Shown piece by piece: positions 492 to 17,828 of a DNA stretch of 38,773 nucleotides. Made by a program: the position numbers and the translations under genes. Origin of the DNA: Opitutales bacterium (GTDB lineage Bacteria; Verrucomicrobiota; Verrucomicrobiia; Opitutales; Oceanipulchritudinaceae); contig JAFIGH010000045.1 of the NCBI GenBank assembly GCA_020831525.1, positions 1-38,773 on the forward strand, written 5' to 3'. The notes beneath the pieces were generated by a model. That model saw nothing but the letters and a program-made list of their open reading frames with translations, was not told the origin of the DNA and did not search any database. Positions within the stretch are counted from its first letter, which is position 1. Every line of letters starts with the position of its first letter.

Positions 492-3400
492 CTACGGTTC
501 GACCAGGCGAACACGCAAACGAAGGAGCAGCGCTGCGGCCTCGCCGGGAATTTTGTAGCTCTGCACGACGGTTTCCGTGCGCCCGTCGCCCACGGGCTCC
601 ACAGACGGTGCGCCTCCGTCCTCGTCCAGCACCGCCCACGTCGTCATGTCGGTGGACCCTTCGAGCACAAGTTCGAGATGACCGTGTTCACTGAGCCGCC
701 CGTGCTCCACGACAAGGACCTCATCGCTGCCTACCTTCTTGATTCGCACCTCCGGAAGCGCGGTCGCGGCATCCTCATACAGCGCCAGTCCGAGGGCATG
801 TTTGAGAAGGTTTTCGAAACCGTCGCCGTCGGCATCCGCAAACGGTCCGCTGACGGAGGCATCGTCCAACTCGCCGAGCGTGAAGTGGCGCGTCCGCCAA
901 GCCGTAAACCCGTCGAAAGGTTCCGCCGGAATACGGATGCCGACGGCGTCCACGCCCGATTGTGTCCGGACCGTCGGGAGAATGCCTCCCGGCACAGTAT
1001 ACACGGAGACGATTTCACCGGAGAGGAGATCCAACTCCTCGATACGGCGGACCCCGAACTTCAGGCCGTTGGGAATGAGGGTTCCCCAGCGGCCGGCACG
1101 GTCCCATACATGGTCTTGATAAAACACGGCGTAGCGACCGTCCACGGGCGAACCGGTCGATTCCACCACCGTCGCGGCAAGCGGACGCCCGCTCCCCGAA
1201 TCCTCATCGTACAAGGCGACTAAGTTTTTTGCCGCGCCCGGGGACTCAGCGTAGAGCGCCGATCCTTCATTCAGGCCGGCGCCGAATGACGTCACCTTCA
1301 CCTCACCCGGTGCCGTGAGGTAGTGAAAATACTCCTCTCCGCCGTCTCCGTCGTTGAGGAGCAAGCGCATGCGGACGGTGTTGCCCGGCGTAAAGCGGGC
1401 ATTGCCGCTGGGCTCCGTGACAAACCACCCGGCGTAGGTTCCGTTTGCGTCTGTCGTGAAAGTCAGGTGCCGCTCTCCAAAATCGCCGGCGCGGAACCGC
1501 GGCGAATCCAGATTGCGGATCCAATCGCTCTGCCGGCCGGTGATGAGAATCGCGTTTCCGGCACCGTTCTGGTCCGGCGGATCCTCCGGCACGACGACGC
1601 GGTTGCCGTAGCGATAGGTCGCCTCCGGTTTCAAGCCCTCGATGCGCAGGCGGAAGGCGAAGGGAACCCGGTCGAGGTTGTCGTTGTTGATGTTCTGGTC
1701 GCCCTGGATGTACCGGGGCATCACCTCTTCGACCACCCGGACGACGTGAAACGGCTGGCTCTGCACCGAATCGAGGCCGTCGCCTGAGACAATAAGCACC
1801 AGTTCGCCCGCGCCATCAACCGCGAGTCCTTCAAAGAGAACCGAGCCCCCCGCCGCGACAGCGGCGTGCGTGCCGTGTAAGACACCGTTGCCCTCCAACG
1901 AAAGGCGCACTTTCCCGTCGAAACCGGTGTCGGTGATGCCGCTGTCATCCACGGCGCGCACAAGAACCGGCGGCAACGGGTCACCGCTCTGGCTCCATTC
2001 GGGCGGCGCCGTTTCGATCACAAGCTCGGAGGCGGCACCCGGCGGCGCGGCCGAAACATGGATATTATCCAAGCGGACCTCCGCCCTCGGCCCTGAATCT
2101 CCGGAAATGTGACAATACTTCCAGCGAAGCTCCAAATACGCCTGACCCGCGGCATCTTCAGGCAACCGCGCCGGGCCGAACACCGCCGTATGCCCTGCCG
2201 CGGCATCGCTTGTATATTCCAACGGCGACCCGTCCGCACCGGGAACATCCGCGAAAGACCCCTCCCCGTTGCGGCGGTATTGCAACCGCATGCCGTACAC
2301 CCGTTCATTGGGGGTAACCGTCTCATTCGTCCACTGCACGTACACATCGTCCACACCGCGTGTATCCAGAAACAGCAGAGCCGATCCGACATATCCGGCG
2401 CCGTCCGCATCCTGGGCATTCGCCGTGTTGATAAAGGAAACGCCTCTGTTTCCCATGCCGTTGATCCGGCTCCGGCTCGTCAGGTTGTACGGCAGCCGCC
2501 AGTATCCGTCCATCGGCGTGGATAGCCGCGGATCGCCTGTTCCTGCTTGTTCAAAAACCATATGGGCGGGCCATGTCCCCGCCGCCGCTTCCGCGCTCCA
2601 GTAGTCGAATTCATACGGCCCCGCAGACAGGTCGAAGGGTTCGAAGGGCGCTTCCATGAAAACCGCCTCCTGAAGGGCACTCCATTCGCCGTCGCGCAAG
2701 ACACGGGCTTTGAGCACAACGGTGCCTTCCATTCCGGCAAGCAGGCTCTCCGGCGGGGCATATGCAACCGCATCGGCCGAAACCGCCGAGGTGCCGCGCT
2801 CCCGCGGGTCCGCTCCGTTCAGGGTATAGTAGACGGTCCCGCCGCCGGGCGCCGTCATTTGTATGCCCTCCGAACCGGCATATCCGCCGTTGCGCGAAAA
2901 CACGGGCGCGTCTGTCGCGGGATAGAGACCCTTCGCCCGGAACTGCTCCACGACAATGGCCGTGCGCTGCGGCAGGTAGGTCTCCAGAATCCAGTCGCGC
3001 ATGTCGCGCCATTGGTCGATGGTCTGCGGCCGCAGGTAGGGTGCCTTACCAAAGTGCTGGTTGCCCCAGCGGGCGGATTCCGCGTAGATCGAAATCTCGA
3101 CATGGTCGGCAAGATCCCGGTAGCGGGGGATCAACTGCTCCGGCGTGAGGAGACCGTCCTCGAAAAGATACCGGTGCACGCGGTCGGCGAAGTCGATCCG
3201 GTACTCGGCAAATTCCTTCAAACGGTAGTGCGGCTTCACGACTCTCGTGTCCTCGATACGCCGTCCGATATCCCGGGGCACTTCAACATCCAAGGGTGAG
3301 CGCGGCATGAGCCCGAGCGTGTCCTCGAAGTCCCAAAGGTAGTATTTGAATCCCGTGCTGTCCGCCGTCTGTTTGCGCCCGAACCAATAGTTGTTGAACA

Positions 3401-5126
3401 CCCAGTCGTAGTTACCGGCCCACATATTAAGGATCATGTAGTCGATGTAATTGTGCTTGTCGAAGTAGACGGGATAGGCCGGGTTTCGTGTGCCGTCGGC
3501 GTTGAGCCCCTGCACCCGCTTGTAGTCTTCAATACCGGACAGCTGCCGCAATTGCCTGTGCATTTCGTCAAGCGCGTCCCGCGTCCCGTTTTTCAACTCG
3601 CCGTCGTGCTTGTGCGAATCCCAGTCCTCCGGCTCGCCGCCGTAGTGCGATGCGGAAAAATGCTGGTTCGGCCGTTCGACAACATTATAGAGCCCCCAGT
3701 AGAGACCGTTGAGGTAAAGGTGCACGAACTTGCCGTGGGGAGAGGTGTGACCCATTTCCAAGTGCAAACGCCGCCCGAATTCGTCACGTGTATATTGCTC
3801 TGTGTCCCGCGCCTGATCCCATGTGTACCCGTCGTTACCACCGCCCCGGAGGACCAAACGGTTGAATTCGTGCGGGGCTCCGGGCACCTTGAAGACATCG
3901 TGCCGCAAGCGGGAGGCGCCGTATTCACCGCGAAACATGAGCCGGAACGAATGCTTCCACGCCACGTCCGGCCGCCGGAACCAACCACCGTGTATGCGCA
4001 GACCGCAGTCGATCTCAAACTCGGTTTCACCGTCGGCTGATACCCATTCCACCGATGCCGGACGTTCCCACTCTTCTCCCCGCTCGCCCGCATTGGCGTA
4101 TATGCCCGTGTCTGTATCAAACAAGTTCGGCAGGCTTGTCGTGACGAATACCGAAGGCAGTGAGCACAGCGCTTCCCGGATCTCGTCTTCGTGCGGTTCC
4201 GTGATACGGCGATCCATTCCGTAGTCGCCATACCGCGTACGACCGCTGCCGGCGCCCCATGTCCAGGTAATCGGAAACCCGTCGGGCCGCTCGGGCTGGG
4301 AAAGCACATCGTCGAGGTAAATATACGTGTGCGTCGTGACGACCGACGGGATCCACCCGTCACGGAAGGCGGCGGCACGGACGGTAACCGAACCGGTGAT
4401 TTCCAACGGCTCCTGGTAGACCGTTCCGCTGTCCGCGGCGGGCGCCGACCCGTCCAACGTGAAGCGGATTTCCGCCCCTTCCGTTTCTGTCGCCAACTCA
4501 AGGACAACCGGCTCCGTTTGGAATCCCCGTTTCACGCTGAATACAGGCCGTGCCGCGAGTTGCGTACCACCGCTGTTCGGCGCGCCCGGCGTCGGCGTCG
4601 TGAAGTATCGGCCTTCTGTGTACGATCCGTCGGGCATCCGCTCGACCCCATACGAGACATCCCGAAGCTGCGGCGGATAGACGGGAGCGTATTCGTACGC
4701 CGCGGTTCCGTCCGGACGAATCAACCCGAGGTACTCGCCATCGGCGCTGAGCCGGAAGTTCGTGTGCAGCTCGGCATCCGCCACGGCGATGTCGAGACCC
4801 GACGCAAAAACGACCAAATACGATGCGGCATTTAGCTGGACCGAAGGAAACGTCCATTGCGTCAGGTCCTCCGCGTCGTCCGTAAGGTGCCACCCGACGA
4901 GATCCACCGGCTCTGTTCCCGGATTGTGGATCTCAATCCAATCCGGCGCAGCGCCGCTCTCGTCGAAGAGAGTTTCGCCGTTGGAGGCCATGAATTCGGT
5001 GATGAGCAGATCTCCTCCGGCACCCGGCGTCCATGTAGCTGCCGCCATACAGAACCACACCGGAATCAGCGCCCGGCGGCATGGTTTACAGCTTTCCCGG
5101 GACGAGCGAACGTATCGATTTGTCAT
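492..5126 (-). CDS. Secreted lamin-tail / CotH-kinase-like multidomain protein
   Basis: A giant exported protein of about 1544 residues. A basic N-terminus and hydrophobic stretch (ALIPVWFCMAAA) suggest a Sec signal. After it come a lamin-tail domain (from about residue 40, LLITEFMASNGE, through IEIHNPG), a chitobiase/hexosaminidase C-terminal-like domain (about 195-275, IRFTLDGSAP), and a CotH-like kinase domain (about 320-610, with LYLNGLYWGLYNVVERPN and YYLWDFEDTLG). Then follow a second chitobiase-C-like domain (TVYYTLNGADP), a jelly-roll-like region (about 880-1080) and a C-terminal module with DADGDGFENLLKHALGL. CotH in Bacillus is an atypical kinase that phosphorylates coat proteins; activity here is inferred from family only. 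ATG at 5126 is preferred; an in-frame GTG lies at 5135. No Shine-Dalgarno is visible. The REP-like block lies directly downstream. Confidence 0.9.
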   Translation of the reverse strand: MTNRYVRSSRESCKPCRRALIPVWFCMAAATWTPGAGGDLLITEFMASNGETLFDESGAAPDWIEIHNPGTEPVDLVGWHLTDDAEDLTQWTFPSVQLNAASYLVVFASGLDIAVADAELHTNFRLSADGEYLGLIRPDGTAAYEYAPVYPPQLRDVSYGVERMPDGSYTEGRYFTTPTPGAPNSGGTQLAARPVFSVKRGFQTEPVVLELATETEGAEIRFTLDGSAPAADSGTVYQEPLEITGSVTVRAAAFRDGWIPSVVTTHTYIYLDDVLSQPERPDGFPITWTWGAGSGRTRYGDYGMDRRITEPHEDEIREALCSLPSVFVTTSLPNLFDTDTGIYANAGERGEEWERPASVEWVSADGETEFEIDCGLRIHGGWFRRPDVAWKHSFRLMFRGEYGASRLRHDVFKVPGAPHEFNRLVLRGGGNDGYTWDQARDTEQYTRDEFGRRLHLEMGHTSPHGKFVHLYLNGLYWGLYNVVERPNQHFSASHYGGEPEDWDSHKHDGELKNGTRDALDEMHRQLRQLSGIEDYKRVQGLNADGTRNPAYPVYFDKHNYIDYMILNMWAGNYDWVFNNYWFGRKQTADSTGFKYYLWDFEDTLGLMPRSPLDVEVPRDIGRRIEDTRVVKPHYRLKEFAEYRIDFADRVHRYLFEDGLLTPEQLIPRYRDLADHVEISIYAESARWGNQHFGKAPYLRPQTIDQWRDMRDWILETYLPQRTAIVVEQFRAKGLYPATDAPVFSRNGGYAGSEGIQMTAPGGGTVYYTLNGADPRERGTSAVSADAVAYAPPESLLAGMEGTVVLKARVLRDGEWSALQEAVFMEAPFEPFDLSAGPYEFDYWSAEAAAGTWPAHMVFEQAGTGDPRLSTPMDGYWRLPYNLTSRSRINGMGNRGVSFINTANAQDADGAGYVGSALLFLDTRGVDDVYVQWTNETVTPNERVYGMRLQYRRNGEGSFADVPGADGSPLEYTSDAAAGHTAVFGPARLPEDAAGQAYLELRWKYCHISGDSGPRAEVRLDNIHVSAAPPGAASELVIETAPPEWSQSGDPLPPVLVRAVDDSGITDTGFDGKVRLSLEGNGVLHGTHAAVAAGGSVLFEGLAVDGAGELVLIVSGDGLDSVQSQPFHVVRVVEEVMPRYIQGDQNINNDNLDRVPFAFRLRIEGLKPEATYRYGNRVVVPEDPPDQNGAGNAILITGRQSDWIRNLDSPRFRAGDFGERHLTFTTDANGTYAGWFVTEPSGNARFTPGNTVRMRLLLNDGDGGEEYFHYLTAPGEVKVTSFGAGLNEGSALYAESPGAAKNLVALYDEDSGSGRPLAATVVESTGSPVDGRYAVFYQDHVWDRAGRWGTLIPNGLKFGVRRIEELDLLSGEIVSVYTVPGGILPTVRTQSGVDAVGIRIPAEPFDGFTAWRTRHFTLGELDDASVSGPFADADGDGFENLLKHALGLALYEDAATALPEVRIKKVGSDEVLVVEHGRLSEHGHLELVLEGSTDMTTWAVLDEDGGAPSVEPVGDGRTETVVQSYKIPGEAAALLLRLRVRLVEP

Positions 5127-5247
5127 GAAATTCACATTGTTGCAAACGCCTCCGGCAGGTGCCCGTCGGGAACCCGACTTGCGGCAAAGTAAGGCATACC
5201 GCCCTCACGGCGCGTTGCCGGAATCCAGATGAGGCAACATCTGTCAA

Positions 5248-7969: not shown

Positions 7970-9175
7970 TCAAAACCGATAATCAAGACGCGCGGAGGCA
8001 ATGGTCCGCGTGAACTCACGAGCGGCCACAGCGGGTCCGTCGCGGTCGTCTCGCCCCTCCTCACGGACAAGGTCGAGATTGAGCCGGAGGTTTTCGCCCA
8101 AATCACGTGCCCAGCCTATACCGGCGGAGTAGATCCAGTCCTTCACAAGACTGCCGTCGTATACGAGACCGCGCGCGCCGCCGTGCACCCGGAGTTGTGA
8201 ACCGTCGTCCCACTGCCGGGTGTAGGCGGCTCCGAACGAGCGCACCTCCGAGCTGAGCAGCCCCGTGCTGGCGACGGCTTTGGACATCGAAGCATTGGCG
8301 GTGACTGTATCCTGATCACTGATACGGAGGCGGGCACGCACGTTGACATACCATGCATCGATGGCCGACGGCCCGACAGAGGCTGGATCGTCGTAGCGGT
8401 GAAAGGAAGGACCGGCCTCGGCGTCGAGGGTGAGCGCTTCCGTCGGCGTGCCGGAAAACCCGAGGAACAGGCGGTGGTATTTGTTGGACCGCGTCGTCGG
8501 CCGCCCGCCTTGGTCGCCCTGGTGCTGCCGCCCGCGGTGCCAGCCGACATAGATCTCGCCGCTTTCCAACTCCCGCCCGAGGTCCAGTCCACCCTGCAAA
8601 TCGAACCGGTTGGTCCAGTTGTCATAGCCGGGGACGCCGGTGCGCACGCGCGAATCGAGGTCGAAATACACAAGCGACGCCGAAGGCCGGACAAAGAAAT
8701 CGCCCCGGCGCACCGTACCCTCCACCCGTGTGCGGTTTTGCCACTGGTCGCGGCGTTCGCGCACAAGAGTTGTCGCCCACGCGTTGCGACCGTCGGCAAA
8801 AAGGACTGCGTCGCGCGGCCCCTGCACCCGCGTCGTCGCCGACTGGAGGAGGAACCGCCCGGCCTCGGCATAGCGGAGCGTCACTGTATGGCGGGCGTGG
8901 TCTTCCCCGTTCTCATCCAGAAAAAAGGCCGCCTCGCCCGCGTAGGTGAGCGAGAAGTGCGCGCTCGGTCTCCATTCGACCGTTGGATGCAATCCGAATG
9001 TCCATGAGCCGCGTTTACCCAGTTCACCGACATCCACGCGATAGACATTCGAATCGTAGCCCCCCTCCACCCCCGCGCGCACCGATACCGAGTCGGCGAC
9101 GGCATGAGCGGCGGAGGCCGCAAGCGCCAAGATGCACGCCCCCAGCGTGCCAACGAAAATAGACTTCTTCCTCAT
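7970..9175 (-). CDS. Outer-membrane beta-barrel protein
   Basis: 401 residues. The ATG at 9175 gives a clean signal peptide (MRKKSIFVGTLGACILALAA, then SAAHA as the likely cleavage site). The mature part is a chain of alternating amphipathic strands (VSVRAGVEGGYDSNVYR, FSLTYAGEAAFF, NLRLNLDLVREEG) and ends in DYRF, a terminal aromatic residue typical of BAM-inserted barrels. The N-terminal GYDSNVYR resembles the opening of TonB-independent barrel families seen next to exopolysaccharide genes, but I cannot name a family. Sequence upstream of 9175 lacks stops in frame to a TTG at 9238, but the encoded extension is not signal-like. It lies upstream of the pectate-lyase fusion on the same strand, with a 250-base gap and a candidate terminator between them. 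Confidence 0.8.
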   Translation of the reverse strand: MRKKSIFVGTLGACILALAASAAHAVADSVSVRAGVEGGYDSNVYRVDVGELGKRGSWTFGLHPTVEWRPSAHFSLTYAGEAAFFLDENGEDHARHTVTLRYAEAGRFLLQSATTRVQGPRDAVLFADGRNAWATTLVRERRDQWQNRTRVEGTVRRGDFFVRPSASLVYFDLDSRVRTGVPGYDNWTNRFDLQGGLDLGRELESGEIYVGWHRGRQHQGDQGGRPTTRSNKYHRLFLGFSGTPTEALTLDAEAGPSFHRYDDPASVGPSAIDAWYVNVRARLRISDQDTVTANASMSKAVASTGLLSSEVRSFGAAYTRQWDDGSQLRVHGGARGLVYDGSLVKDWIYSAGIGWARDLGENLRLNLDLVREEGRDDRDGPAVAAREFTRTIASARLDYRF

Positions 9176-9425
9176 TCGACGCGCCAGCGTTCGCCTGAAG
9201 GGCAAGGGGATCAAGTCCCATCCCGGAGCACCCGACAATGAGCGACGCCCTAATGATGCTCAAAAGCGCAGGTGATAATCTTACGAATCCGAGCGCGGAG
9301 AACCCGTGTTACGGTACTGTCCCGGTGCACCGCCTCTCTTCGGCTTCCGATTTTACGCTTGTTTCCATCGCGCCGCGGGCATCGAATCCCGCGTTCCGAC
9401 ATGGCCGTCCGCGGCCGCCGACGTT

Positions 9426-11027
9426 ATGAACCGAAAAACGCTCATCGCCCTTGTCCTTGCTGTAGCGGGATTCATCACCGCCCTGCTGCTGCCCGTTGCC
9501 GACCTGTCGACGGCGGGCCAGATCACGCTCGGGATCTTTCTCTTCGCCGCCGTCTTCTGGGTCCTCGAACCGATCCCGATCTACGCGACGTCGCTCCTCG
9601 TGATCCTCCTCCAGGTGCTCCTCCTCAGCGCGCAGGGTCCGCTCGCACAATATACCGCGCCCGCGACAGTCCAGCCCGTGCGCGTTGAGGCAAACGTGTG
9701 GGAAATCCCGGCAACCGCGCTAACGGACGACGGGAGCGTGCGGGTCCGCCGCAACGGGCGTTTCCAGGCGGTCGCAGTGGACGTGCGCGAGACTGCGGCG
9801 GACACCGTGGCCGTCCGCTCCGCCGAACTCACCGAAGACAGCGCCCTCGCACGGCGCGCCCGCCACTGGCAGGCCGAGTTCAGCCCGCCTTCCTACACCA
9901 TCTTTCTCAACACACTTGCGAGCCCGATCATCATTCTCTTTCTCGGCGGCTTCGTCATGGCCGCGGGCGCCTCCAAATACAGAGTCGACCGCAACCTCAT
10001 CCGGATCATCCTCCGGCCCTTCGGCACGCGGCCCGCGAGCATTATGATCGGGATGATGGTCATCACGGCCCTGCTCTCGGCCTTCATGAGCAACACCGCC
10101 ACGACCGCCATGATGATGGCTGTGGTCCTGCCGATTATCGGTGCCGCGCCCGAGGGCGACCGCTTCCGCATCGGCGTCGCGCTGTGCATTCCCTTCGCCG
10201 CCAACCTCGGCGGCATCGCCACGCCCATCGGCACACCGCCCAACGCCATCGCCCTCGGCGCGCTCGCCCAGCAGGGCGTGAACATTCCCTTTACGACATG
10301 GATGGGCCTCACTGTGCCGCTCGTGGTGCTCATGCTCGTCTTCGTATGGTTTCTCCTCCTGCGGGTTTTCCCGAGCGGCGAAAAGAATCTCGCCCTCGAA
10401 CTGACGGGCACCTTCGAGACCTCTCCCAAAGCATGGGCTCTCTACATTGTCGCCGGCGGAACCATTCTTCTCTGGGTCACCGAAGCCCTGCACGGACTCT
10501 CCAGTAGCCTCGTCGCACTCATACCGGTGGCCCTGCTCACCGCTTTCCAAGTGGTGGAAAAGAAAGAGGTGCGCAACCTTCCATGGGAGGTCCTCTGGCT
10601 CATGGCAGGCGGTCTCGCCCTCGGCGTGGCCATGCGGGAGACGGGTCTTGCCGAGTGGATGGTCGGCATTGTGCCATGGGGCGTTCTCGGCGCGGCGGGT
10701 GCCCTCGCCGTCTTCGGCATCGTCGCCATTCTTCTCTCCAACTTCATTTCCAATACGGTCGCGGCCACGCTCCTCATGCCGCTGGTCATGAGTTTCGTCG
10801 CCTCGGGCATGGCCGAGGGCTTTGCCCTGACCACCGCCGCGCTCACCGTCGCGGTGGGCACCAGCCTTGCCATGGCCCTGCCCGTCTCCACGCCGCCCAA
10901 CGCCATCGCCGTGAGCACGGGCCTGATCCGCACCCCCGATATGGTGAAGATGGGCGTCATCATCGGCACGGTCGGCTATGCCGCCGTCCTCGCCATGGCC
11001 TTCCTTTTCTGGAACCTCATTTTCTAG
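9426..11027 (+). CDS. DASS/SLC13-family carboxylate symporter
   Basis: 533 residues with about 11-12 membrane segments. It belongs to the divalent anion:Na+ symporter family, which imports di- and tricarboxylates or sulfate. Both hallmark SNT repeats are present (MSNTATTAMM near 222 and SNFISNTVAATLL), each followed by its partner loop (GGIATPIGTPPNAIALG near 262-278 and PVSTPPNAIAVS). The family signature WVLEPIPIYATSLL sits at 45-58. Residues about 75-157, between the first hairpin and the FLGGF segment, form a mostly polar insertion (VRVEANVWEIP, VRVRRNGRF) that ordinary DASS members lack. ATG at 9426 places the first hydrophobic segment correctly; an upstream TTG at 9306 adds 40 non-membrane residues. 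It is the first gene of an operon with a receiver protein 19 bases on and a histidine kinase, suggesting that the two-component pair senses or controls this transport. Confidence 0.9.
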   Translation: MNRKTLIALVLAVAGFITALLLPVADLSTAGQITLGIFLFAAVFWVLEPIPIYATSLLVILLQVLLLSAQGPLAQYTAPATVQPVRVEANVWEIPATALTDDGSVRVRRNGRFQAVAVDVRETAADTVAVRSAELTEDSALARRARHWQAEFSPPSYTIFLNTLASPIIILFLGGFVMAAGASKYRVDRNLIRIILRPFGTRPASIMIGMMVITALLSAFMSNTATTAMMMAVVLPIIGAAPEGDRFRIGVALCIPFAANLGGIATPIGTPPNAIALGALAQQGVNIPFTTWMGLTVPLVVLMLVFVWFLLLRVFPSGEKNLALELTGTFETSPKAWALYIVAGGTILLWVTEALHGLSSSLVALIPVALLTAFQVVEKKEVRNLPWEVLWLMAGGLALGVAMRETGLAEWMVGIVPWGVLGAAGALAVFGIVAILLSNFISNTVAATLLMPLVMSFVASGMAEGFALTTAALTVAVGTSLAMALPVSTPPNAIAVSTGLIRTPDMVKMGVIIGTVGYAAVLAMAFLFWNLIF

Positions 11028-11046
11028 CCCCGAACCACCCCGCACC

Positions 11047-11553
11047 ATGCCTGACATCCACATCCTCTGCATCGAAGACGAACCCGATGTGCTCGACGCC
11101 GTCCTGCGCGACCTCGCGCCCTTCGAAGAGAAGTTCACCCTCACCGGTGCGGCCGACGCCGCCGAAGCCCGCGAAATCCTCGAGGGCCTCGACCCGGAAA
11201 ACGATGCCGTCGGCCTCATCTTCTGCGATCACATCATGCCGGGCCAGCGCGGGATCGAACTCCTCATCGCCTTGAAAAAGGAGAATCTCCAGCCGCTGGA
11301 GTACACCCGCAAGGTCCTCTTCACCGGACAGGCCGACCACGCCGACACCATCCAGGCGATCAACGAAGCAGGCATCGACCACTACCTCGCGAAACCGTGG
11401 GAGGCCGACGAACTGCGCGGTCTTGCGCGCAAGCTCCTTACCGAGTTCGTCATCGCTGCCCGCATTCCCCCCCTGCCCTACATGGCGGTCCTCGACGGCG
11501 CGCGGCTCGCCGAGGTCATCCACGACCGCAACGACCTCAATGAAACCGGCTAA
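11047..11553 (+). CDS. Stand-alone response-regulator receiver protein
   Basis: 168 residues. A CheY-like receiver domain occupies about 1-135: acidic pair E10/D11 (CIEDEPD), phosphoacceptor D61 (FCDHIMPG), switch T93 (LFTGQAD) and K116 (YLAKPWE). The remaining ~33 residues contain no DNA-binding, GGDEF or HD-GYP domain, so it probably acts through protein contact. It starts 19 bases after the transporter stop and its last 14 bases overlap the start of the histidine kinase, so the pair is almost certainly translated together. ATG at 11047 is immediately before the first receiver strand; the in-frame upstream extension runs into the transporter gene. Confidence 0.92.
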   Translation: MPDIHILCIEDEPDVLDAVLRDLAPFEEKFTLTGAADAAEAREILEGLDPENDAVGLIFCDHIMPGQRGIELLIALKKENLQPLEYTRKVLFTGQADHADTIQAINEAGIDHYLAKPWEADELRGLARKLLTEFVIAARIPPLPYMAVLDGARLAEVIHDRNDLNETG

Positions 11554-13003
11554 GGACTTTCCGGAAAAGTCCGGCAGCCGCACTCCAGGCCGCGAAAGCC
11601 TCGTCGCGGCCATCGAAAACATCTGCGCAAGCGCCGGGCTGACGAAACAACACATCCACAGGTTCACCTCCGGCGAAGTCATCCTTGGCGAGGGCACCCG
11701 CGGCGGAAAGATCGGCCTCATCCTCGGCGGCACCGCCTCGCTCGTGAAACGCACCGAAGAGGGCGAAACCGTGCATGTCGACACCGTGGGCCGCGGCGAA
11801 ATCATCGGTTTGCTCTCCTACTTCGCCCGCGAAATCAATTTCGTCAGCGTGCATGCCGCCGACGACACCCGTGTTTTTCTCGTCGACTGGGACACTTTCG
11901 ATACACTGCAGGAGGAACATCCCGAACTGGCCGAACCGCTCGGGCACCTTATGCGCGACACGCTCATGGGCCGCTACCGCCGTCTCGTGCGCATCCACCT
12001 CGACGTCGCCCGGCTCAACCAGGAACTCGCCGCCGAGCGCTCCGAACTGCGCGAGACCATCGAGGAACTCGGGCACACCCGCAGCCGTCTCGTTAATCAG
12101 GAAAAACTCGCCATGCTCGGCAAAATCGTCGCCGGTCTCGCGCACGAGTTGAACAACCCCGTCTCCGCCATCGCGCGCAACACCGACTACCTCGCCGAGA
12201 TCCTCCAGCGCCTCGTCGGTCTCGACCCCGGCGATCCCCGCACCCGCTGGTGGGCGCACGGCGGCGACAACCGCACCCTCGACACCCGCGCGCAGCGCGC
12301 CCGCGCCGCCGAGCTGGGCAATCGTTTCCCGAAGGTCTCGCGCAACACCCTGCGGCGCCTCGCCGCCGTCCCCGCCGACCTCGTCGACAACCTCGACGCC
12401 TCGCCCGCCACCGACGACGGCTGGGAAGACTGGCTGCTCCCCTTCGAGGCGGGCCGTTTCCTCCACACTCTGCGCTCCGCTTCCACCCGCATCGCCCGCC
12501 TCGTGCGCAGCCTCAAAAACTACGCCCGCCCCGGACACGAAGCCCTCGAATCCGTCGACGTCGCCACGGGACTGCGCGACACGCTTCTCATTCTCGCCCA
12601 CCACTTCAAGGGGCTCGAAGTCGTCGCCGACATCGGCGAGCTTCCCTACGTCCGCGGCAACGCCGGCGAACTCAACCAAGTCTGGACCAACCTCCTCGTC
12701 AATGCCAGCGAGGCCATGGGCGACAACGGCACCCTTACCCTCCGCGCCGCACACACCGACGGCGAAGTGCGCGTCACTATCGAAGACACCGGCCCCGGCC
12801 TCCCGCAGGAAAAAGTGGATACCATCTTCGAGCCTCACTACACCACGAAAGCCCAGGGCGGCCAGTTCGGCCTCGGCCTAGGCCTCTCCATCGCCCGCGA
12901 GATCGTCCACAAACACGGCGGCACCATCCGCGCCGAAAACCGCCCCGAAGGCGGCGCCCGCTTCACCGTCACGCTCCCGGCGGAAAACGGACGACGCGGG
13001 TAG
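11540..13003 (+). CDS. Cytoplasmic histidine kinase with N-terminal cyclic-nucleotide-binding-type domain
   Basis: 487 residues, no membrane segment. Residues about 30-145 are a cNMP-binding/Crp-type beta-roll (FTSGEVILGEG, GRGEIIGLLSYF). A predicted coiled coil (about 152-190) leads to the H-box GLAHELNNPVSAI with phosphoacceptor H202. About 100 residues (TRWWAHGGDNRTLDTRAQ and onward, many acidic and basic) separate the first dimerisation helix from the second (STRIARLVRSLKNYAR), much longer than a usual hairpin. The ATPase core follows: N-box ELNQVWTNLLVNASEAM, G1 EDTGPGLP, F-box IFEPHYTTK, G2 GLGLGLSIAREIV. The ATG at 11540 overlaps the receiver gene by 14 bases. It probably phosphorylates that receiver. 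The ligand of the beta-roll is unknown; some such domains bind no nucleotide. Confidence 0.92.
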   Translation: MKPAKDFPEKSGSRTPGRESLVAAIENICASAGLTKQHIHRFTSGEVILGEGTRGGKIGLILGGTASLVKRTEEGETVHVDTVGRGEIIGLLSYFAREINFVSVHAADDTRVFLVDWDTFDTLQEEHPELAEPLGHLMRDTLMGRYRRLVRIHLDVARLNQELAAERSELRETIEELGHTRSRLVNQEKLAMLGKIVAGLAHELNNPVSAIARNTDYLAEILQRLVGLDPGDPRTRWWAHGGDNRTLDTRAQRARAAELGNRFPKVSRNTLRRLAAVPADLVDNLDASPATDDGWEDWLLPFEAGRFLHTLRSASTRIARLVRSLKNYARPGHEALESVDVATGLRDTLLILAHHFKGLEVVADIGELPYVRGNAGELNQVWTNLLVNASEAMGDNGTLTLRAAHTDGEVRVTIEDTGPGLPQEKVDTIFEPHYTTKAQGGQFGLGLGLSIAREIVHKHGGTIRAENRPEGGARFTVTLPAENGRRG

Positions 13004-13054: not shown

Positions 13055-16000
13055 ATGGGCATGCGTTTTCTCTGTCTACTGTCACTCTTCACTGGATTCG
13101 TTGCCACCGGGAGCCTCTCCGCAAATCCGTGGACCCATGCGCTCGCGTTCAACGAGGCCCCGTATTTTGTCCCTGCGGAACCTTTGGACGGCGAGGGACG
13201 CTTCCACATCGCATGGGCGAAGTTCACGGTGCTACCCGCGGTACATCCGGAGGATGAAACGCGGGTCTACTTTCAGGACAGCCGCCAATATCCGTTTCAC
13301 TTCGATTTCGCCCGTGACCACATTCCGGAATTCACGGGAATCTCCCGCGCCGAGTTCGATGCGCAAACACTATACAATACGGGCCGCCGCGCGCTATCCG
13401 GCGCGGTGTTGGCCATTCTTGAGTATTCGGGAGGACCGACAGGGCTTGTTCCGGTGGCCGCCGGAATTCAGTTTGTATCTCAAGATCCATTGGACCGCGA
13501 GTTCGTCGCGAACAGTTTCTACACAGTTCTCTCCGCTTTCGACGACCCCGACAGTATTCCCAGCTACTATTTTCCGACCTTTGAACAGACGGAAGCCGCC
13601 CGGAACGACGGCGAATGGCTGCGCGAACAAGGCATCGAAACAGCCTCGATCCAGCGGTGGTCCAGTCCCGAGGCGGTATACGCCGCAGGGTGGGCCATCG
13701 GCCGTCTCGTCGAAGTTGCCGCAGCGGAAATTCGCGCTGCCTACGCGGACGGCAGTCTGCGCCCTTCCGATGTTCTGCTTACCGACCGGATTCCGGCGGA
13801 AATTCCTTTCGTGGCAGGAGTGATCACCCGGTATCCGGCGACTCCCAATTCCCATGTCGCTCTCCTCGCGCGGTCGTGGAGCATCCCCTTCGTTCATATC
13901 GGCACGGATAGATTCGCCATGAACAGCCTCATCGGAACCGACGTCGCCTTGTCAGCCGTCGAGCCGCAGCGTCCGAGAATCAACCTACGTCCGCTCGATC
14001 CAGACATGGATCCGGCCCTGCTCGAAGAAATCCTCGCCCTCAAAGCACCCCCCGACCTCCGGCTTCCCCCGATGCGGGAAGCGGGAACACTGTGGGTACA
14101 CGTGGACGGAGCCCGCCCCGCTGACATAGACACGATTGGCGGGAAGGCGGCGAATTTCGGCCTGCTGCGGGAGGCGATTCCCGACAACGCCCCCCTCGCC
14201 ATTGCCGTTACATTCGACCTCTGGAAGCAGTTCATGGCGCAACCACTGCCCGGCCGCGGACATTCCCTTGCCGACGAAATCTCGGCACGCCTCGCACCCT
14301 TCGACTCATATCCGCCTGATTTCGCCGCGCTGAACAGCGAACTCGCCTCCATCCGGCGGATGATCCGCAGTGACACCGCCTTTACCGCCGCTCAACAAGA
14401 GGAAATACTCGAGGTGCTCGGCGCGCATTTCGAAGCCCACCGCCGGATCCGCTTCCGCAGCTCGACCAACATGGAAGACAGCGATCACTTCGCAGGCGCG
14501 GGCCTTTACGACAGCTACAGCGGCTGCCTCCTCGACGACCTCGTCCCCCGTACGACCGGTCCCTCCTTTTGCAATCCCGACCGCCCTTCGCAGCAAGGTG
14601 TCTTCCGTGCCATCCGCCGTGTCTTCGCCAGTTTCTACAACGAAAACGCGGCGACGGAGCGCCTGCGCCACGGGATTGACCCGGAATCCGTCGGCATGGC
14701 CGTGCTTGTCCACCACTCCTTTCCCGATGAGATTGAGTTGGCCAACGGGGTAGCGGTGATTGAACCCCGATACGAAGGAGAAACCGTCAGTTCGCTCCGC
14801 TTCACCTTCGTCACACAGAAAGGAGCGGAACCGGTGACCAACCCCACCGGTGATGCCGTCGCAGAAGTTGTTCATACGACGGCTTGGGGCGACCACGACC
14901 CGACCTCCTATCACTTCACACAGCACTCCAACCTTCTTCTCCTCGGCGATTCGAGCGTTATGGAGAGGAACCACGACTACCGCGAGCTTGCAGGCTTGCT
15001 GCGTGCGGTGCGCAGGGCGTTCGTCGAAGCACGTCCCGAACTGAGGGAGCGCCCGCTTGAATTTGAATTCAAAAAGCTGAGTCCCGACGGATCCCTTATC
15101 GTCAAACAGGTGCGCCCGCTCTCCCTCCCGCCGTCGCCGCCGGATGTCCGCTACCTCTTCGCCGGTTCAGTGGAACTCGTCCCCTTTCAAGGCGAAGCGT
15201 CCACCGTCTCCGCAATCCACAGGGCGAAAAGCCGGTGGAATCTCGCACTACCGTCGCAGCGTCTTGAGGCGGAGAAAAGCGGGGAGGCCCGCTTCACCTC
15301 CGTCCGCTACGAGCGGAAAGCCGGCTCGGGCATCCAGACATGGACGACTCCGCTGGAAACATGGCCGGGATACCGCGCCTCCGTAGAAACCCCCGCCCCC
15401 TTCGGCAACGACCGGATCCTGAGGCATTCATGGAACGAAACGGTCGCCGACCTTTCCGCCACGCGCACTCTCGCGGTTACCGTGCCAAGGCGCACCGAGA
15501 TCCCGTGGCTCTATCCGGACGAGTTGACCTTCGAACTCCTCACGGACTATCCGCGCCACCCGGCACCGTGGATACAACACCTACGATGGGATCCCGGCAG
15601 CGATCTCACACAACCGGTCACAGAGCGCGTTCTACTTGTGCGGACGCCGCGTCCGGCAGGCCCCGAAGAAGGGGACCTTGCCCGGCATCGCATGGTTCAG
15701 TATGCCGGAGTCACTGTCGACTCCCGCTTCTACTGGCCGCCCAACCCGTTGGGTTTTGCCAACTACACGGCTCCGCTCGTGGCATGGGAAACAACGCGCA
15801 TCACCGGACTCACGCAGCAACCCTTCGAAGTCACCGCGCCGTTTGCCCAGACCTACCGTCCGAATCACCACAATATCGGCGAGCGCTTCATTTTCGAGCC
15901 GCGGCTCGATCCGGCAGTTGGCCCCGAGGTCATTGCCGAATTGGAAGCACAGGGTATCGCCGCACTCTACGTCCGCTACAACAGCGGGGGCACAGGAATC

Positions 16001-16354
16001 CAATTCATCAATGAAAGCGGTGCGTTGACCGACCCGGTCGAAGCCTACTTCGGGCCGGTGGACTACCCGCTCTTTAGTGAATCTACGGAGTCGGAGTGGC
16101 TCGGACGATTCTTCCCGGCAGCGTTTCCCTTTGTAAAGCATTCGAGCATGGGCTGGTTCTACGTGTGCGGGGGCACTCCGGACGGATTGTGGCTCACCAA
16201 GGTGCCTTCCTCGGGGGGATGGCTCTGGACGAACGCGGACCTCTATCCATTCTTCTTCTCCGCGGACGAAAACGCATGGCTCTACCACTGGCCCGCTGAG
16301 AGCAACCCCGGCTGGTGGTACAGCTACCCCCGGCAGCGCTGGACGCAGGATTGA
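13055..16354 (+). CDS. Secreted PEP-utiliser/PPDK-type ATP-grasp protein, domain order rearranged
   Basis: 1099 residues with a Sec signal peptide (FLCLLSLFTGFVATGSLSA). After an uncharacterised region, residues about 240-285 resemble the swivelling phosphohistidine domain of PEP-utilising enzymes (PATPNSHVALLARSWSIPFV; candidate phospho-His H267). Residues about 345-690 are a pyruvate,phosphate dikinase N-terminal (ATP-grasp) domain: IGGKAANFGLL near 361, FRSSTNMEDSDHFAGAGLYD near 468 and KQVRPL near 683. In classical PPDK, PEP synthase and rifampin phosphotransferase the His domain follows the ATP-grasp; here it precedes it. The last ~400 residues have no assignment and end in a tryptophan/tyrosine-rich module (GWLWTNADLYPFFF, WLYHW, WWYSY) of a style I associate with Verrucomicrobiota surface proteins. 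The substrate is unknown, and export implies little ATP. ATG at 13061 is an alternative start. It lies 51 bases after the kinase gene and may belong to the same transcript. Confidence 0.85.
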   Translation: MGMRFLCLLSLFTGFVATGSLSANPWTHALAFNEAPYFVPAEPLDGEGRFHIAWAKFTVLPAVHPEDETRVYFQDSRQYPFHFDFARDHIPEFTGISRAEFDAQTLYNTGRRALSGAVLAILEYSGGPTGLVPVAAGIQFVSQDPLDREFVANSFYTVLSAFDDPDSIPSYYFPTFEQTEAARNDGEWLREQGIETASIQRWSSPEAVYAAGWAIGRLVEVAAAEIRAAYADGSLRPSDVLLTDRIPAEIPFVAGVITRYPATPNSHVALLARSWSIPFVHIGTDRFAMNSLIGTDVALSAVEPQRPRINLRPLDPDMDPALLEEILALKAPPDLRLPPMREAGTLWVHVDGARPADIDTIGGKAANFGLLREAIPDNAPLAIAVTFDLWKQFMAQPLPGRGHSLADEISARLAPFDSYPPDFAALNSELASIRRMIRSDTAFTAAQQEEILEVLGAHFEAHRRIRFRSSTNMEDSDHFAGAGLYDSYSGCLLDDLVPRTTGPSFCNPDRPSQQGVFRAIRRVFASFYNENAATERLRHGIDPESVGMAVLVHHSFPDEIELANGVAVIEPRYEGETVSSLRFTFVTQKGAEPVTNPTGDAVAEVVHTTAWGDHDPTSYHFTQHSNLLLLGDSSVMERNHDYRELAGLLRAVRRAFVEARPELRERPLEFEFKKLSPDGSLIVKQVRPLSLPPSPPDVRYLFAGSVELVPFQGEASTVSAIHRAKSRWNLALPSQRLEAEKSGEARFTSVRYERKAGSGIQTWTTPLETWPGYRASVETPAPFGNDRILRHSWNETVADLSATRTLAVTVPRRTEIPWLYPDELTFELLTDYPRHPAPWIQHLRWDPGSDLTQPVTERVLLVRTPRPAGPEEGDLARHRMVQYAGVTVDSRFYWPPNPLGFANYTAPLVAWETTRITGLTQQPFEVTAPFAQTYRPNHHNIGERFIFEPRLDPAVGPEVIAELEAQGIAALYVRYNSGGTGIQFINESGALTDPVEAYFGPVDYPLFSESTESEWLGRFFPAAFPFVKHSSMGWFYVCGGTPDGLWLTKVPSSGGWLWTNADLYPFFFSADENAWLYHWPAESNPGWWYSYPRQRWTQD

Positions 16355-16364
16355 CGGCAGCCTC

Positions 16365-16655
16365 TCACTTCCGTCTGCGTCTTTCGGCGGCCCTGTAAAC
16401 GGCGTGGTTTTCCCGCCTGCCCACAGCAATCACGTAGACGGTGACTTCCTCCTTCCGGACCTCGTAAACCATGCGGTAGCCCGAGCTGCGTAGCTTGATC
16501 TTGTAGTAGTCGCTTTGACCGCGGAGCCGGTCCGCGGGAACCACTGGATCCAGCAACCTCTCCCGGAGCTTCTTCTTGAACTGAATCCGGACCGTTTCGC
16601 CCAGTTTGTTCCACTCCTTCAGGGCGGACGGCAGAAACTTCAAGTTATAGCTCAT
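16365..16655 (-). CDS. relE: RelE-family mRNA interferase toxin
   Basis: 96 residues, the usual RelE length. RelE cuts mRNA codons in the ribosomal A site. The catalytic residues of E. coli RelE all appear at the same numbering: K52 and K54 (YKIKLRSSGYR), R61, R81 and Y87 (VGRRENHAVY). The N-terminus (FLPSALKEWNKLGETVR) is also close to the enterobacterial protein. ATG at 16655 overlaps the antitoxin stop by 11 bases; a TTG one codon upstream is possible. The gene ends 10 bases from the convergent secreted-protein gene, with no terminator visible between. Confidence 0.93.
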   Translation of the reverse strand: MSYNLKFLPSALKEWNKLGETVRIQFKKKLRERLLDPVVPADRLRGQSDYYKIKLRSSGYRMVYEVRKEEVTVYVIAVGRRENHAVYRAAERRRRK

Positions 16656-16896
16656 CAAGGGAAACGCTTTTCGCCTTCGCCCTCTCGCCTTTCCGCGCCT
16701 CGACCAGCTCCATCAGTTCGGCGTCTTCCAACCTCTCCAGCATTTCCTCGTACAAGGCCGCCGGAATCAGATAAGCCGTCGGCCGGTTGTGATTGAGGAT
16801 GGCGACCGGCTCGCCTCCGGATTGGTCGAGAAGCTTGCCGGGGTTTTTCTTCAGTTCTGAGACACTCGCGGCATACGGGCTTAATACAGTGTTCAT
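16645..16896 (-). CDS. Phd/YefM-family antitoxin of the RelE module
   Basis: 83 residues. The N-terminal Phd-like DNA-binding fold is clear (ASVSELKKNPGKLLDQ, PVAILNHNRPTAYLIP), followed by a charged helix and tail (YEEMLERLEDAELMELV) that would wrap the toxin. Placed first in the pair and overlapping the toxin by 11 bases, it should be made ahead of the toxin and, with it, repress its own promoter. Pairing a RelE toxin with a Phd-type (not RHH-type RelB) antitoxin is common, as in the YafNO and StbDE types. Confidence 0.92.
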   Translation of the reverse strand: MNTVLSPYAASVSELKKNPGKLLDQSGGEPVAILNHNRPTAYLIPAALYEEMLERLEDAELMELVEARKGERAKAKSVSLDEL

Positions 16897-17157: not shown

Positions 17158-17556
17158 TCACCGCTGGCGGATGACCCGCACCGGATACGCCTCGAACCGC
17201 CGGTCCGTTGTAAAGACGGGAACAGCATTCTGCCCCGCCAAGGCAAGGATCATCCGGTCGAAAGGATCCTCGTGCAGCGGCGGAAGGAGTTCCGCCGCGT
17301 TGCAGATTTCCGCTTCAAGCGGGCAAAGGAAGATACGGTGCCGCTCGCAAACGGCCTCGACAAACGCCCCGACGCCTTCCTGTCGGCACGGAAGCTCAAG
17401 CTTTCCGACACGGAGTTTCCGTGCGATTTCCCACACGGTCACCGACAAGACGACGGGTTGCTCCGCGTGCTTCAACTCACGGCGCGCCTTGCGGTCTGTC
17501 CAGCGTCCCGCCGCCAGATCGAGGAGAGCGCAGGTATCGAGCACATGCGTGATCAA
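17158..17556 (-). CDS. PIN-domain (VapC-like) ribonuclease toxin
   Basis: 132 residues if started at the TTG at 17556. PIN domains are Mg-dependent RNases, in VapC toxins often specific for tRNA. The acidic set is visible: D7 (VLDTCALLDLA), E43 (VWEIARKLRVG), D97/D100 (HEDPFDRMILA) and D118 (TTDRRFEAY). The TTG overlaps the antitoxin TGA in the sequence TTGA, a typical coupling arrangement, and begins right before the first strand. An in-frame TTG at 17583 would add nine residues and overlap the antitoxin by 31 bases. Confidence 0.88.
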   Translation of the reverse strand: MITHVLDTCALLDLAAGRWTDRKARRELKHAEQPVVLSVTVWEIARKLRVGKLELPCRQEGVGAFVEAVCERHRIFLCPLEAEICNAAELLPPLHEDPFDRMILALAGQNAVPVFTTDRRFEAYPVRVIRQR

Positions 17557-17780
17557 TCGGTATCCTTCCACTCGGACTCCCAAACGGCCTCATCCGTATA
17601 GGATATGCGGCCCTTCCAACGCGGATCGGGCACCAAGGTGCGCTCTCTCTCCGCACCCACCGGCACGATCCGGAACAACGGACCGTTGCGGCCCCGCCGA
17701 ATGAAAACGGCGTCACCCGCTTCCGCGCGGCGCAGCAGCTTCGAAAGCTGGTTTTTCGCTTCCAATACCGAAGCTTCCAT
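17553..17780 (-). CDS. Phd/YefM-type antitoxin partner of the PIN toxin
   Basis: 75 residues. The N-terminus has the Phd pattern (MEASVLEAKNQLSKLLRRAE, then GDAVFIRRG and PLFRIVPV); the C-terminal tail is short, with aromatic and acidic residues (SYTDEAVWESEWKD), suited to fold onto a toxin. ATG at 17780 matches the family start; the TTG at 17798 adds six residues. Its stop codon overlaps the toxin start. Confidence 0.88.
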   Translation of the reverse strand: MEASVLEAKNQLSKLLRRAEAGDAVFIRRGRNGPLFRIVPVGAERERTLVPDPRWKGRISYTDEAVWESEWKDTD

Positions 17781-17784
17781 GTTG

Positions 17785-17828
17785 GCCAAGCTAGCCAAGT
17801 TGTCGTGCGCGTCAAGGAATTCCCTTGA
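17785..17828 (-). promoter_or_regulatory. Possible operator upstream of the PIN module
   Basis: Directly upstream of the antitoxin ATG, CTTGGC occurs twice on the minus strand (revcomp of 17785-17790 and 17794-17799), one helical-turn-like 9 bases apart. Further upstream is an inverted repeat, TCAAGG (17812-17817) with CCTTGA (17823-17828) around AATTC. Such repeats are where Phd-type antitoxins bind, but no clear -10 box fits. It lies between divergent genes, so it could also affect the membrane-protein gene at 17923. Confidence 0.25.

What the first reader, a model, noticed from the sequence alone, without database searches (positions are those of the whole stretch)
13055..16354. Secreted PPDK-type ATP-grasp protein with the phosphohistidine-like domain in front
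The sequence shows a signal peptide, then a swivelling-domain-like segment (NSHVALLARSWSIPF, H267), then a PPDK N-terminal ATP-grasp domain (IGGKAANFGLL, FRSSTNMEDSDHFAGAGLYD). Known PEP-utilising enzymes are cytoplasmic and carry the His domain after the ATP-grasp. Reversed order and export suggest an undescribed phosphotransferase or a catalytically repurposed binding protein of the cell surface. The ~400-residue C-terminal part with a W/Y-rich ending is unassigned.
Basis: partly seen in the sequence, partly recalled or inferred. Interest (0 to 1): 0.68.

Follow-up and report, generated by a model that had tools for sequence, protein, structure and literature searches.

The report
Exported dikinase with histidine domain first
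A bacterial protein built like the enzymes that charge a histidine with phosphate from ATP, but with its parts in reversed order and a signal for leaving the cell interior, turns out to belong to a large, apparently undescribed family found in many bacterial phyla.

Summary
Predicted structure places the ATP-grasp on rifampin phosphotransferase and PEP synthase (Z about 28) and the domain around H267 on a swivel domain (Z 10.5). H267 and the ATP-site Lys, Glu, Gln and Arg are kept in 82 of 82 rows, so a dead binding protein is unlikely. A home-made signal rule fires in 60 of 70 relatives (8 of 70 control windows); six rows of one branch lack a signal. The order is not unprecedented: plant glucan, water dikinases share it. 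Further parts: an N-terminal domain with near-invariant Lys56 and His82 (acceptor site, inferred); in one clade an ATP-grasp insert with a Cys pair (25 of 25 rows); and a C-terminal domain that in two other genomes is the next gene, with its own signal-like start. The last ~95 residues are a W/Y-rich tail that recurs at the ends of at least 23 other ORFs of this genome. Best reading: an exported His-first dikinase family, a new variant of a known kind; activity and acceptor untested.

The parts
13055..16354 (+). whole gene, 1099-aa exported dikinase-like protein
   Evidence: relatives
13055..13123 (+). signal peptide (residues 1-23, MGMRFLCLLSLFTGFVATGSLSA)
   Evidence: direct reading; family-wide signal count
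13172..13669 (+). N-terminal domain (about residues 40-205), candidate acceptor-binding domain; K56, H82, G116 near-invariant
   Evidence: no Pfam family in more than one or two members; its profile rang in 4 of 288 genomes, each time inside this protein
13670..14002 (+). swivelling phosphohistidine domain (about residues 206-316)
   Evidence: Z 10.5 to RPH swivel
13853..13855 (+). H267, predicted phosphohistidine, motif TPNSHVALLARSWSIP
   Evidence: 82/82; paired with the PEP synthase His in the weak second domains
14081..15136 (+). PPDK-type ATP-grasp domain (residues 343-694) with K364, R468, E671, Q685, R687
14522..14590 (+). clade-A insert in the ATP-grasp with invariant C491/C506 pair (candidate disulphide)
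   Evidence: 25/25 clade A rows, gap in 57/57 clade B rows
15143..16063 (+). C-terminal beta-rich partner domain (697-1003); invariants GE..HR.K and HHN..E
   Evidence: separate downstream gene in L156 and L057
16070..16351 (+). W/Y-rich C-terminal tail recurring on other proteins of this genome
   Evidence: 25 matches including itself at E<=0.05; 24 of 25 end within 40 residues of the stop
11423..13003 (+). upstream neighbour: cNMP-binding sensor histidine kinase, 51 nt upstream; link not shown to be conserved

Best explanation
The protein is an exported dikinase of the PPDK / PEP-synthase / RPH / GWD superfamily with the phosphohistidine domain placed before the ATP-grasp. Proposed cycle: the ATP-grasp (343-694) binds ATP and phosphorylates H267 on the swivelling domain, releasing AMP and phosphate; the swivel then carries the phosphoryl group to an acceptor held by the N-terminal domain (K56/H82). 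In clade A a further secreted beta-rich domain (697-1003) works with it, either fused or as the next gene, perhaps presenting or processing the substrate. Shown here: domain anatomy and order, conserved catalytic residues, signal-like start in most relatives examined, partner-domain fusion and fission, the recurrent tail. Inferred: catalysis, the N-domain as acceptor site, an extracytoplasmic acceptor (a surface glycan or a small molecule is my guess), and a supply of ATP outside the cytoplasm.
For: Fold matches. H267, K364, E671, Q685, R687 in 82/82 rows, none of them part of the scan patterns. The PEP synthase alignments pair the GGK Lys and RSS Arg, and in 8a8e also the E and the Q.R of the last strands. 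Signal-like start 60/70 against 8/70 control windows, 54 against 3 and 44 against 1 at stricter thresholds. Cys pair 25/25; in the window protein the only two Cys outside signal and tail. The C-domain is a separate gene 1 nt (L156) and 6 nt (L057) after the dikinase stop, each with a signal-like N-terminus by reading (L156 confirmed by hhalign, prob 99.8). N-domain and swivel also in a Streptomyces protein (hhalign prob 99.4). The host has two further PPDK_N proteins, and 12 of 12 other family genomes have at least one further PPDK_N place in a frame of 796-1217 aa, so the family is additional to them.
Against: No activity is shown. ATP is scarce outside the cytoplasm. Six rows of one branch (L063, L070, L074, L075, L077, L093) have no signal-like start at any threshold, so export is not essential to the chemistry. 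Cys content does not set signal-bearing clade B rows apart from the signal-less ones (0.22 against 0.17-0.5 per 100 residues). No neighbour shared across the family names the substrate. The rows were picked with two sequence patterns (one RSSTN[MN]ED) and are the best 80 of 496, so degenerate relatives could be missed and R468/SSTN.ED conservation is partly built in. The window's PEP-utilizers match is below cut-off and Foldseek alone did not find the swivel match at E<=0.001.
Confidence: 0.6

Rival explanations
1. It is a bacterial glucan, water dikinase: it phosphorylates an alpha-glucan or other extracellular polysaccharide the way GWD phosphorylates starch.
For: Same His-before-ATP-grasp order. 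On the N-terminal/swivel part, GWD1_pHisD and PEP-utilizers are the only Pfam models hit by more than two members: 14 and 22 of 59 at E<=0.1, best GWD1_pHisD E 4.2e-5.
Against: The GWD1_pHisD scores printed (21.9 and 15.3 bits) are below the 27-bit cut-off and the window protein itself has no hit at E<=0.1. No carbohydrate-binding module hit in the window protein. GWD sequences could not be fetched for a tree.
Confidence: 0.15
2. The protein is a non-catalytic exported nucleotide- or ligand-binding protein.
For: Extracytoplasmic ATP is scarce; surface-type extra domains occur in relatives (cadherin in L101, LTD in L059).
Against: Phosphohistidine and ATP-site residues in 82/82 rows from ten phylum-level groups by record title.
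Confidence: 0.12
3. The dikinase runs the other way: it takes phosphoryl groups from phosphorylated extracellular compounds (nutrient or phosphate scavenging), or uses water as final acceptor.
For: PPDK runs in both directions in different organisms (start of the PMC5371819 abstract); an exported enzyme may meet phospho-compounds more often than ATP (inference).
Against: No shared neighbour or fused domain pointing to phosphate scavenging was seen.
Confidence: 0.13

Closest known systems
alpha-glucan, water dikinase GWD / phosphoglucan, water dikinase PWD (plants)
   Same: phosphohistidine domain precedes a C-terminal PPDK-like nucleotide-binding domain; weak GWD1_pHisD similarity in 14 of 59 members
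   Different: GWD1 and GWD3 are chloroplast proteins with N-terminal CBM45/CBM20 modules, not found here; this family has its own N-domain and mostly a bacterial export signal
rifampin phosphotransferase RPH and two-component phenolic dikinases (HpeHI, CreHI, PpsAB)
   Same: top structural matches for both ATP-grasp and swivel
   Different: RPH has ATP-grasp first and its His near the C-terminus; no match of its acceptor domain to the N-domain was seen; cytoplasmic (recalled)
PEP synthase (pyruvate, water dikinase) and PPDK
   Same: ATP-grasp and swivel folds, ATP-site residues
   Different: order ATP-grasp, His, pyruvate domain; the window protein scores 40.3 bits against a 598-bit equivalog cut-off
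Streptomyces plasmid 'PEP/pyruvate-binding domain-containing protein' (P0002, NZ_CP109451.1)
   Same: same N-domain, swivel and ATP-grasp order
   Different: no signal peptide by reading; lies between an ATP-grasp protein gene and an MFS transporter gene in two strains

Membership tests
PPDK_N ATP-grasp superfamily | PF01326 above gathering score and ATP-grasp fold | tested here: met
   60.6 vs 27 bits; Z 28.1 to RPH
PPDK_N ATP-grasp superfamily | ATP-site residues intact | tested here: met
   K364, E671, Q685, R687 82/82; R468 82/82 but partly selected by the scan pattern
PEP-utilising phosphohistidine enzymes | swivelling domain with catalytic His | tested here: met
   Z 10.5 to RPH swivel, H267 82/82; PF00391 match of the window protein below cut-off
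PEP synthase / PPDK | ATP-grasp, then His, then pyruvate/PEP domain | tested here: not met
   order reversed; no PEP-binding domain model at E<=0.1; NCBIfam cut-offs not reached
Rifampin phosphotransferase | NF041857 cut-off 999 bits, His near C-terminus | tested here: not met
   30.5 bits; His at 267 of 1099
Glucan, water dikinase | phosphohistidine domain before nucleotide-binding domain | tested here: met
   GWD order from passages
Glucan, water dikinase | GWD1_pHisD above cut-off | tested here: not met
   window protein no hit at E<=0.1; 14/59 members hit at E<=0.1; highest score printed 21.9 of 27 bits
Glucan, water dikinase | starch-binding module and glucan phosphorylation | not testable with these tools
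   no CBM model hit; activity needs a bench assay
Dikinase by mechanism | ATP to AMP with phosphohistidine intermediate | not testable with these tools
   bench assay needed

The most novel reading that the evidence does not exclude
A widespread class of bacterial dikinases works outside the cytoplasm: an exported, His-first enzyme uses extracytoplasmic ATP to load a histidine and phosphorylate surface or environmental molecules, with a novel acceptor domain and, in one clade, a novel secreted partner domain.
Probability: 0.35. Interest if true: 0.82.

Novelty: new variant of a known kind. Interest (0 to 1): 0.6.

Why it matters
Phosphohistidine dikinases are known as enzymes of the cytoplasm or plastid (recalled for most). 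A conserved, catalytically intact-looking, mostly exported family in ten phylum-level groups would extend this chemistry to the cell envelope, raise the question of where ATP comes from there, and offers two uncharacterised domains with sharp invariant residues that can be tested directly.

Tried and rejected
Viral contigs and phages gave no match. Gene neighbourhoods: clustering 645 neighbour ORFs from 80 loci and the window gave no neighbour shared across the family; the largest cluster (13 ORFs in 11 loci; the two members tested are ABC transporters) and the others (at most 6 loci) do not span it. The first signal-peptide control was mis-set (only the last 110 residues before the conserved block were scanned: 14 of 74 against 0) and was replaced. 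An earlier, more permissive pass gave 65 signal, 9 none and 6 truncated of 80, with some picks that read as spurious (L067, L100, L109). No general signal-peptide predictor was on hand. The N-domain has no Pfam family (scattered hits in one or two of 59 members) and only chance-level PDB sequence hits (E 0.41 and worse); the fold searches barely tested it, so absence of a known fold is not shown. The C-domain had no Pfam match in 17 members and no PDB sequence match; its fold was not searched alone. GWD1_pHisD in the own genome and 14 control genomes rang nowhere, which shows nothing either way. Alignments used 59 of 82 rows (A2, A3), 17 of 22 (A4), 30 of 56 (A5). In one search the partial hits in G258 and G122 (E about 1e-12) were not examined. 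In the swivel search, pyruvate kinase (Z 9.1-9.5) and a small archaeal protein (Z 9.3) tie with the leading rows and MccF-like proteins score Z 6.3-7.5; I set these aside as sharing a common arrangement, because sequence motif and Pfam point to the phosphohistidine domain.

Full report
What is there. The ORF 13055-16354 (+) encodes 1099 residues. Pfam gives PPDK_N at 359-568 (60.6 bits, cut-off 27) and a sub-threshold PEP-utilizers match at 248-280. NCBIfam's best match is PEP synthase, far below its equivalog cut-off (40.3 of 598 bits). The genome has two other PPDK_N proteins (open frames 908 and 931 aa), so this is not its only PPDK-type protein.

Structure. An AlphaFold model from a 59-row alignment has mean pLDDT 82, pTM 0.80. 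Residues 343-694 match RPH (5hv1, Z 28.1, 296 residues, 2.8 A) and PEP synthase (2ols, Z 27.6). A second model of residues 23-345 (pLDDT 89.8, pTM 0.69) places protein residues 200-315 on the RPH swivel domain (Z 10.5, 98 residues, 2.3 A); the seven top rows are RPH or PTS enzyme I, a pyruvate kinase follows at Z 9.5 (tied), and PPDK appears from rank 14. Foldseek alone gave no hit at E<=0.001 for this second model, so the swivel assignment rests on the aligner's second look plus sequence.

Family. With the window protein and L011 there are 82 rows. H267, K364, E671, Q685 and R687 are in 82/82; R468 and the SSTN.ED motif too, but the latter was a scan pattern. Against PEP synthases the profile pairs the GGK lysine and the RSS arginine, and in 8a8e also the E and Q.R of the last strands. 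By record title the rows fall in ten phylum-level groups, in two sides separated by a 100/100 branch: clade A (25 rows, 19 labelled Verrucomicrobiota, with an extra C-domain) and clade B (57 rows, many ending right after the ATP-grasp). The records are mostly metagenome bins, so single placements are unsure. In a phylum sample 6 of 288 genomes had a match, the host included, so the gene is sparse there.

Export. A simple rule (hydrophobic stretch, charge, cleavage or lipobox pattern, any start codon) fires before the conserved block in 60 of 70 rows with a closed 5' end against 8 of 70 internal windows of up to the same length; 54 against 3 and 44 against 1 at stricter settings. Six rows from Solirubrobacteraceae and Myxococcota (L063, L070, L074, L075, L077, L093) fail at every setting and lie in one well-supported group of nine rows, which also holds rows that pass, L069 and L081. 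Independent support for clade A: a short insert in the ATP-grasp carries a Cys pair in 25 of 25 rows and is a gap in 57 of 57 clade B rows; in the window protein these are the only cysteines outside signal and tail. Within clade B, Cys content does not separate signal-bearing from signal-less rows.

N-terminal domain. About 165 residues before the swivel are conserved in both clades: K56 75/77, H82 78/78, G116 79/80. No Pfam family covers it. In 288 genomes its profile rang in 4, each time in this protein. By analogy with RPH and HpeHI, whose further domain binds the acceptor (passages of PMC4844700 and PMC12167813), I infer it is the acceptor site. A Streptomyces plasmid protein without a signal shares N-domain and swivel (prob 99.4) and lies between an ATP-grasp protein gene and an MFS transporter gene in two strains, which suggests small-molecule work in that branch.

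C-terminal part. Residues 697-1003 are a beta-rich domain in clade A with invariant GE..HR.K and HHN..E motifs. The first motif is in the same ORF in 22 of 24 clade A loci; L043 is cut by the contig end, and in L057 it lies in the next ORF. In L156 (G267) and L057 the domain is encoded by the next gene, starting 1 and 6 bases after the dikinase stop, with a hydrophobic, signal-like start of its own; L057's copy is cut by the contig end (L156 by hhalign prob 99.8). Fusion in most clade A loci and paired genes with separate signals in two is good evidence that the two parts work together outside the cytoplasm. In 387 genomes the C-domain profile rang in 2, both with the dikinase.

Tail. The last ~95 residues match 24 other places in the genome at E<=0.05. 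Counting the window protein, 24 of 25 matches end within 40 residues of a stop codon; the exception, L149, has an in-frame stop. By reading the pattern is HGWLY..W..LGWLWT..YPW.Y..W.Y..WFYD, and it recurs in other genomes of the order. It is in the same-genus relatives but not in the other closed clade A C-termini printed. It looks like a lineage-specific surface or sorting tail; its function is unknown.

Comparison. The reversed order is shared with plant GWD: His992 in potato (passage of PMC12892837) and a C-terminal PPDK-like nucleotide-binding domain in cassava GWDs (passage of PMC5575247). GWD1_pHisD hits 14 of 59 members at E<=0.1, the highest score printed being 21.9 of 27 bits, so it resembles a GWD in layout without being shown to be one. 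Papers were seen as search listings and passages only; searches listed none that by title or start of abstract describes this family.

Verdict. An exported, catalytically intact-looking His-first dikinase family; the chemistry and substrate remain untested.

Noticed in passing
window 16070-16351 and 24 other places in the genome: A W/Y-rich C-terminal tail of about 90 residues recurs at the ends of otherwise different ORFs in this genome and in other genomes of the order; possible sorting or surface tail. No Pfam model covered it in the window protein.
   Followed up: partly
L009 / L037 (SKLD01000549.1): The same-genus copy lies on a 4.17 kb contig whose ends overlap by 118 identical bases, as if the gene plus a spacer with a 153-bp tandem repeat (3.6 copies) were a tandem array or a circle.
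   Followed up: partly
window 492-5135 (-): Large CotH kinase protein with LTD, chitobiase C-terminal and Fn3-associated domains, a second kinase-like protein in the same window.
   Followed up: no
window 16365-16896 and 17158-17798 (-): Two adjacent toxin-antitoxin-like pairs: ParE with Phd/YefM, and PIN with a weak Phd/YefM match.
   Followed up: partly
window 9720-11219 (-) and 7970-9238 (-): Two long ORFs without a Pfam match at E<=0.1.
   Followed up: no
L128, L129 (Streptomyces plasmids): Trio of ATP-grasp protein, signal-less relative of this dikinase and MFS transporter in both strains: a possible small-molecule pathway that could reveal the acceptor.
   Followed up: partly
L059: A planctomycete member has a Lamin Tail Domain match at residues 494-576, between the swivel and the PPDK_N match.
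   Followed up: no
G430 and G431 (genomes of L058 and L050): Besides the clade A protein and a PPDK-like match these genomes show a third PPDK_N place (frames 588 and 878 aa) that may be a clade B paralogue.
   Followed up: no
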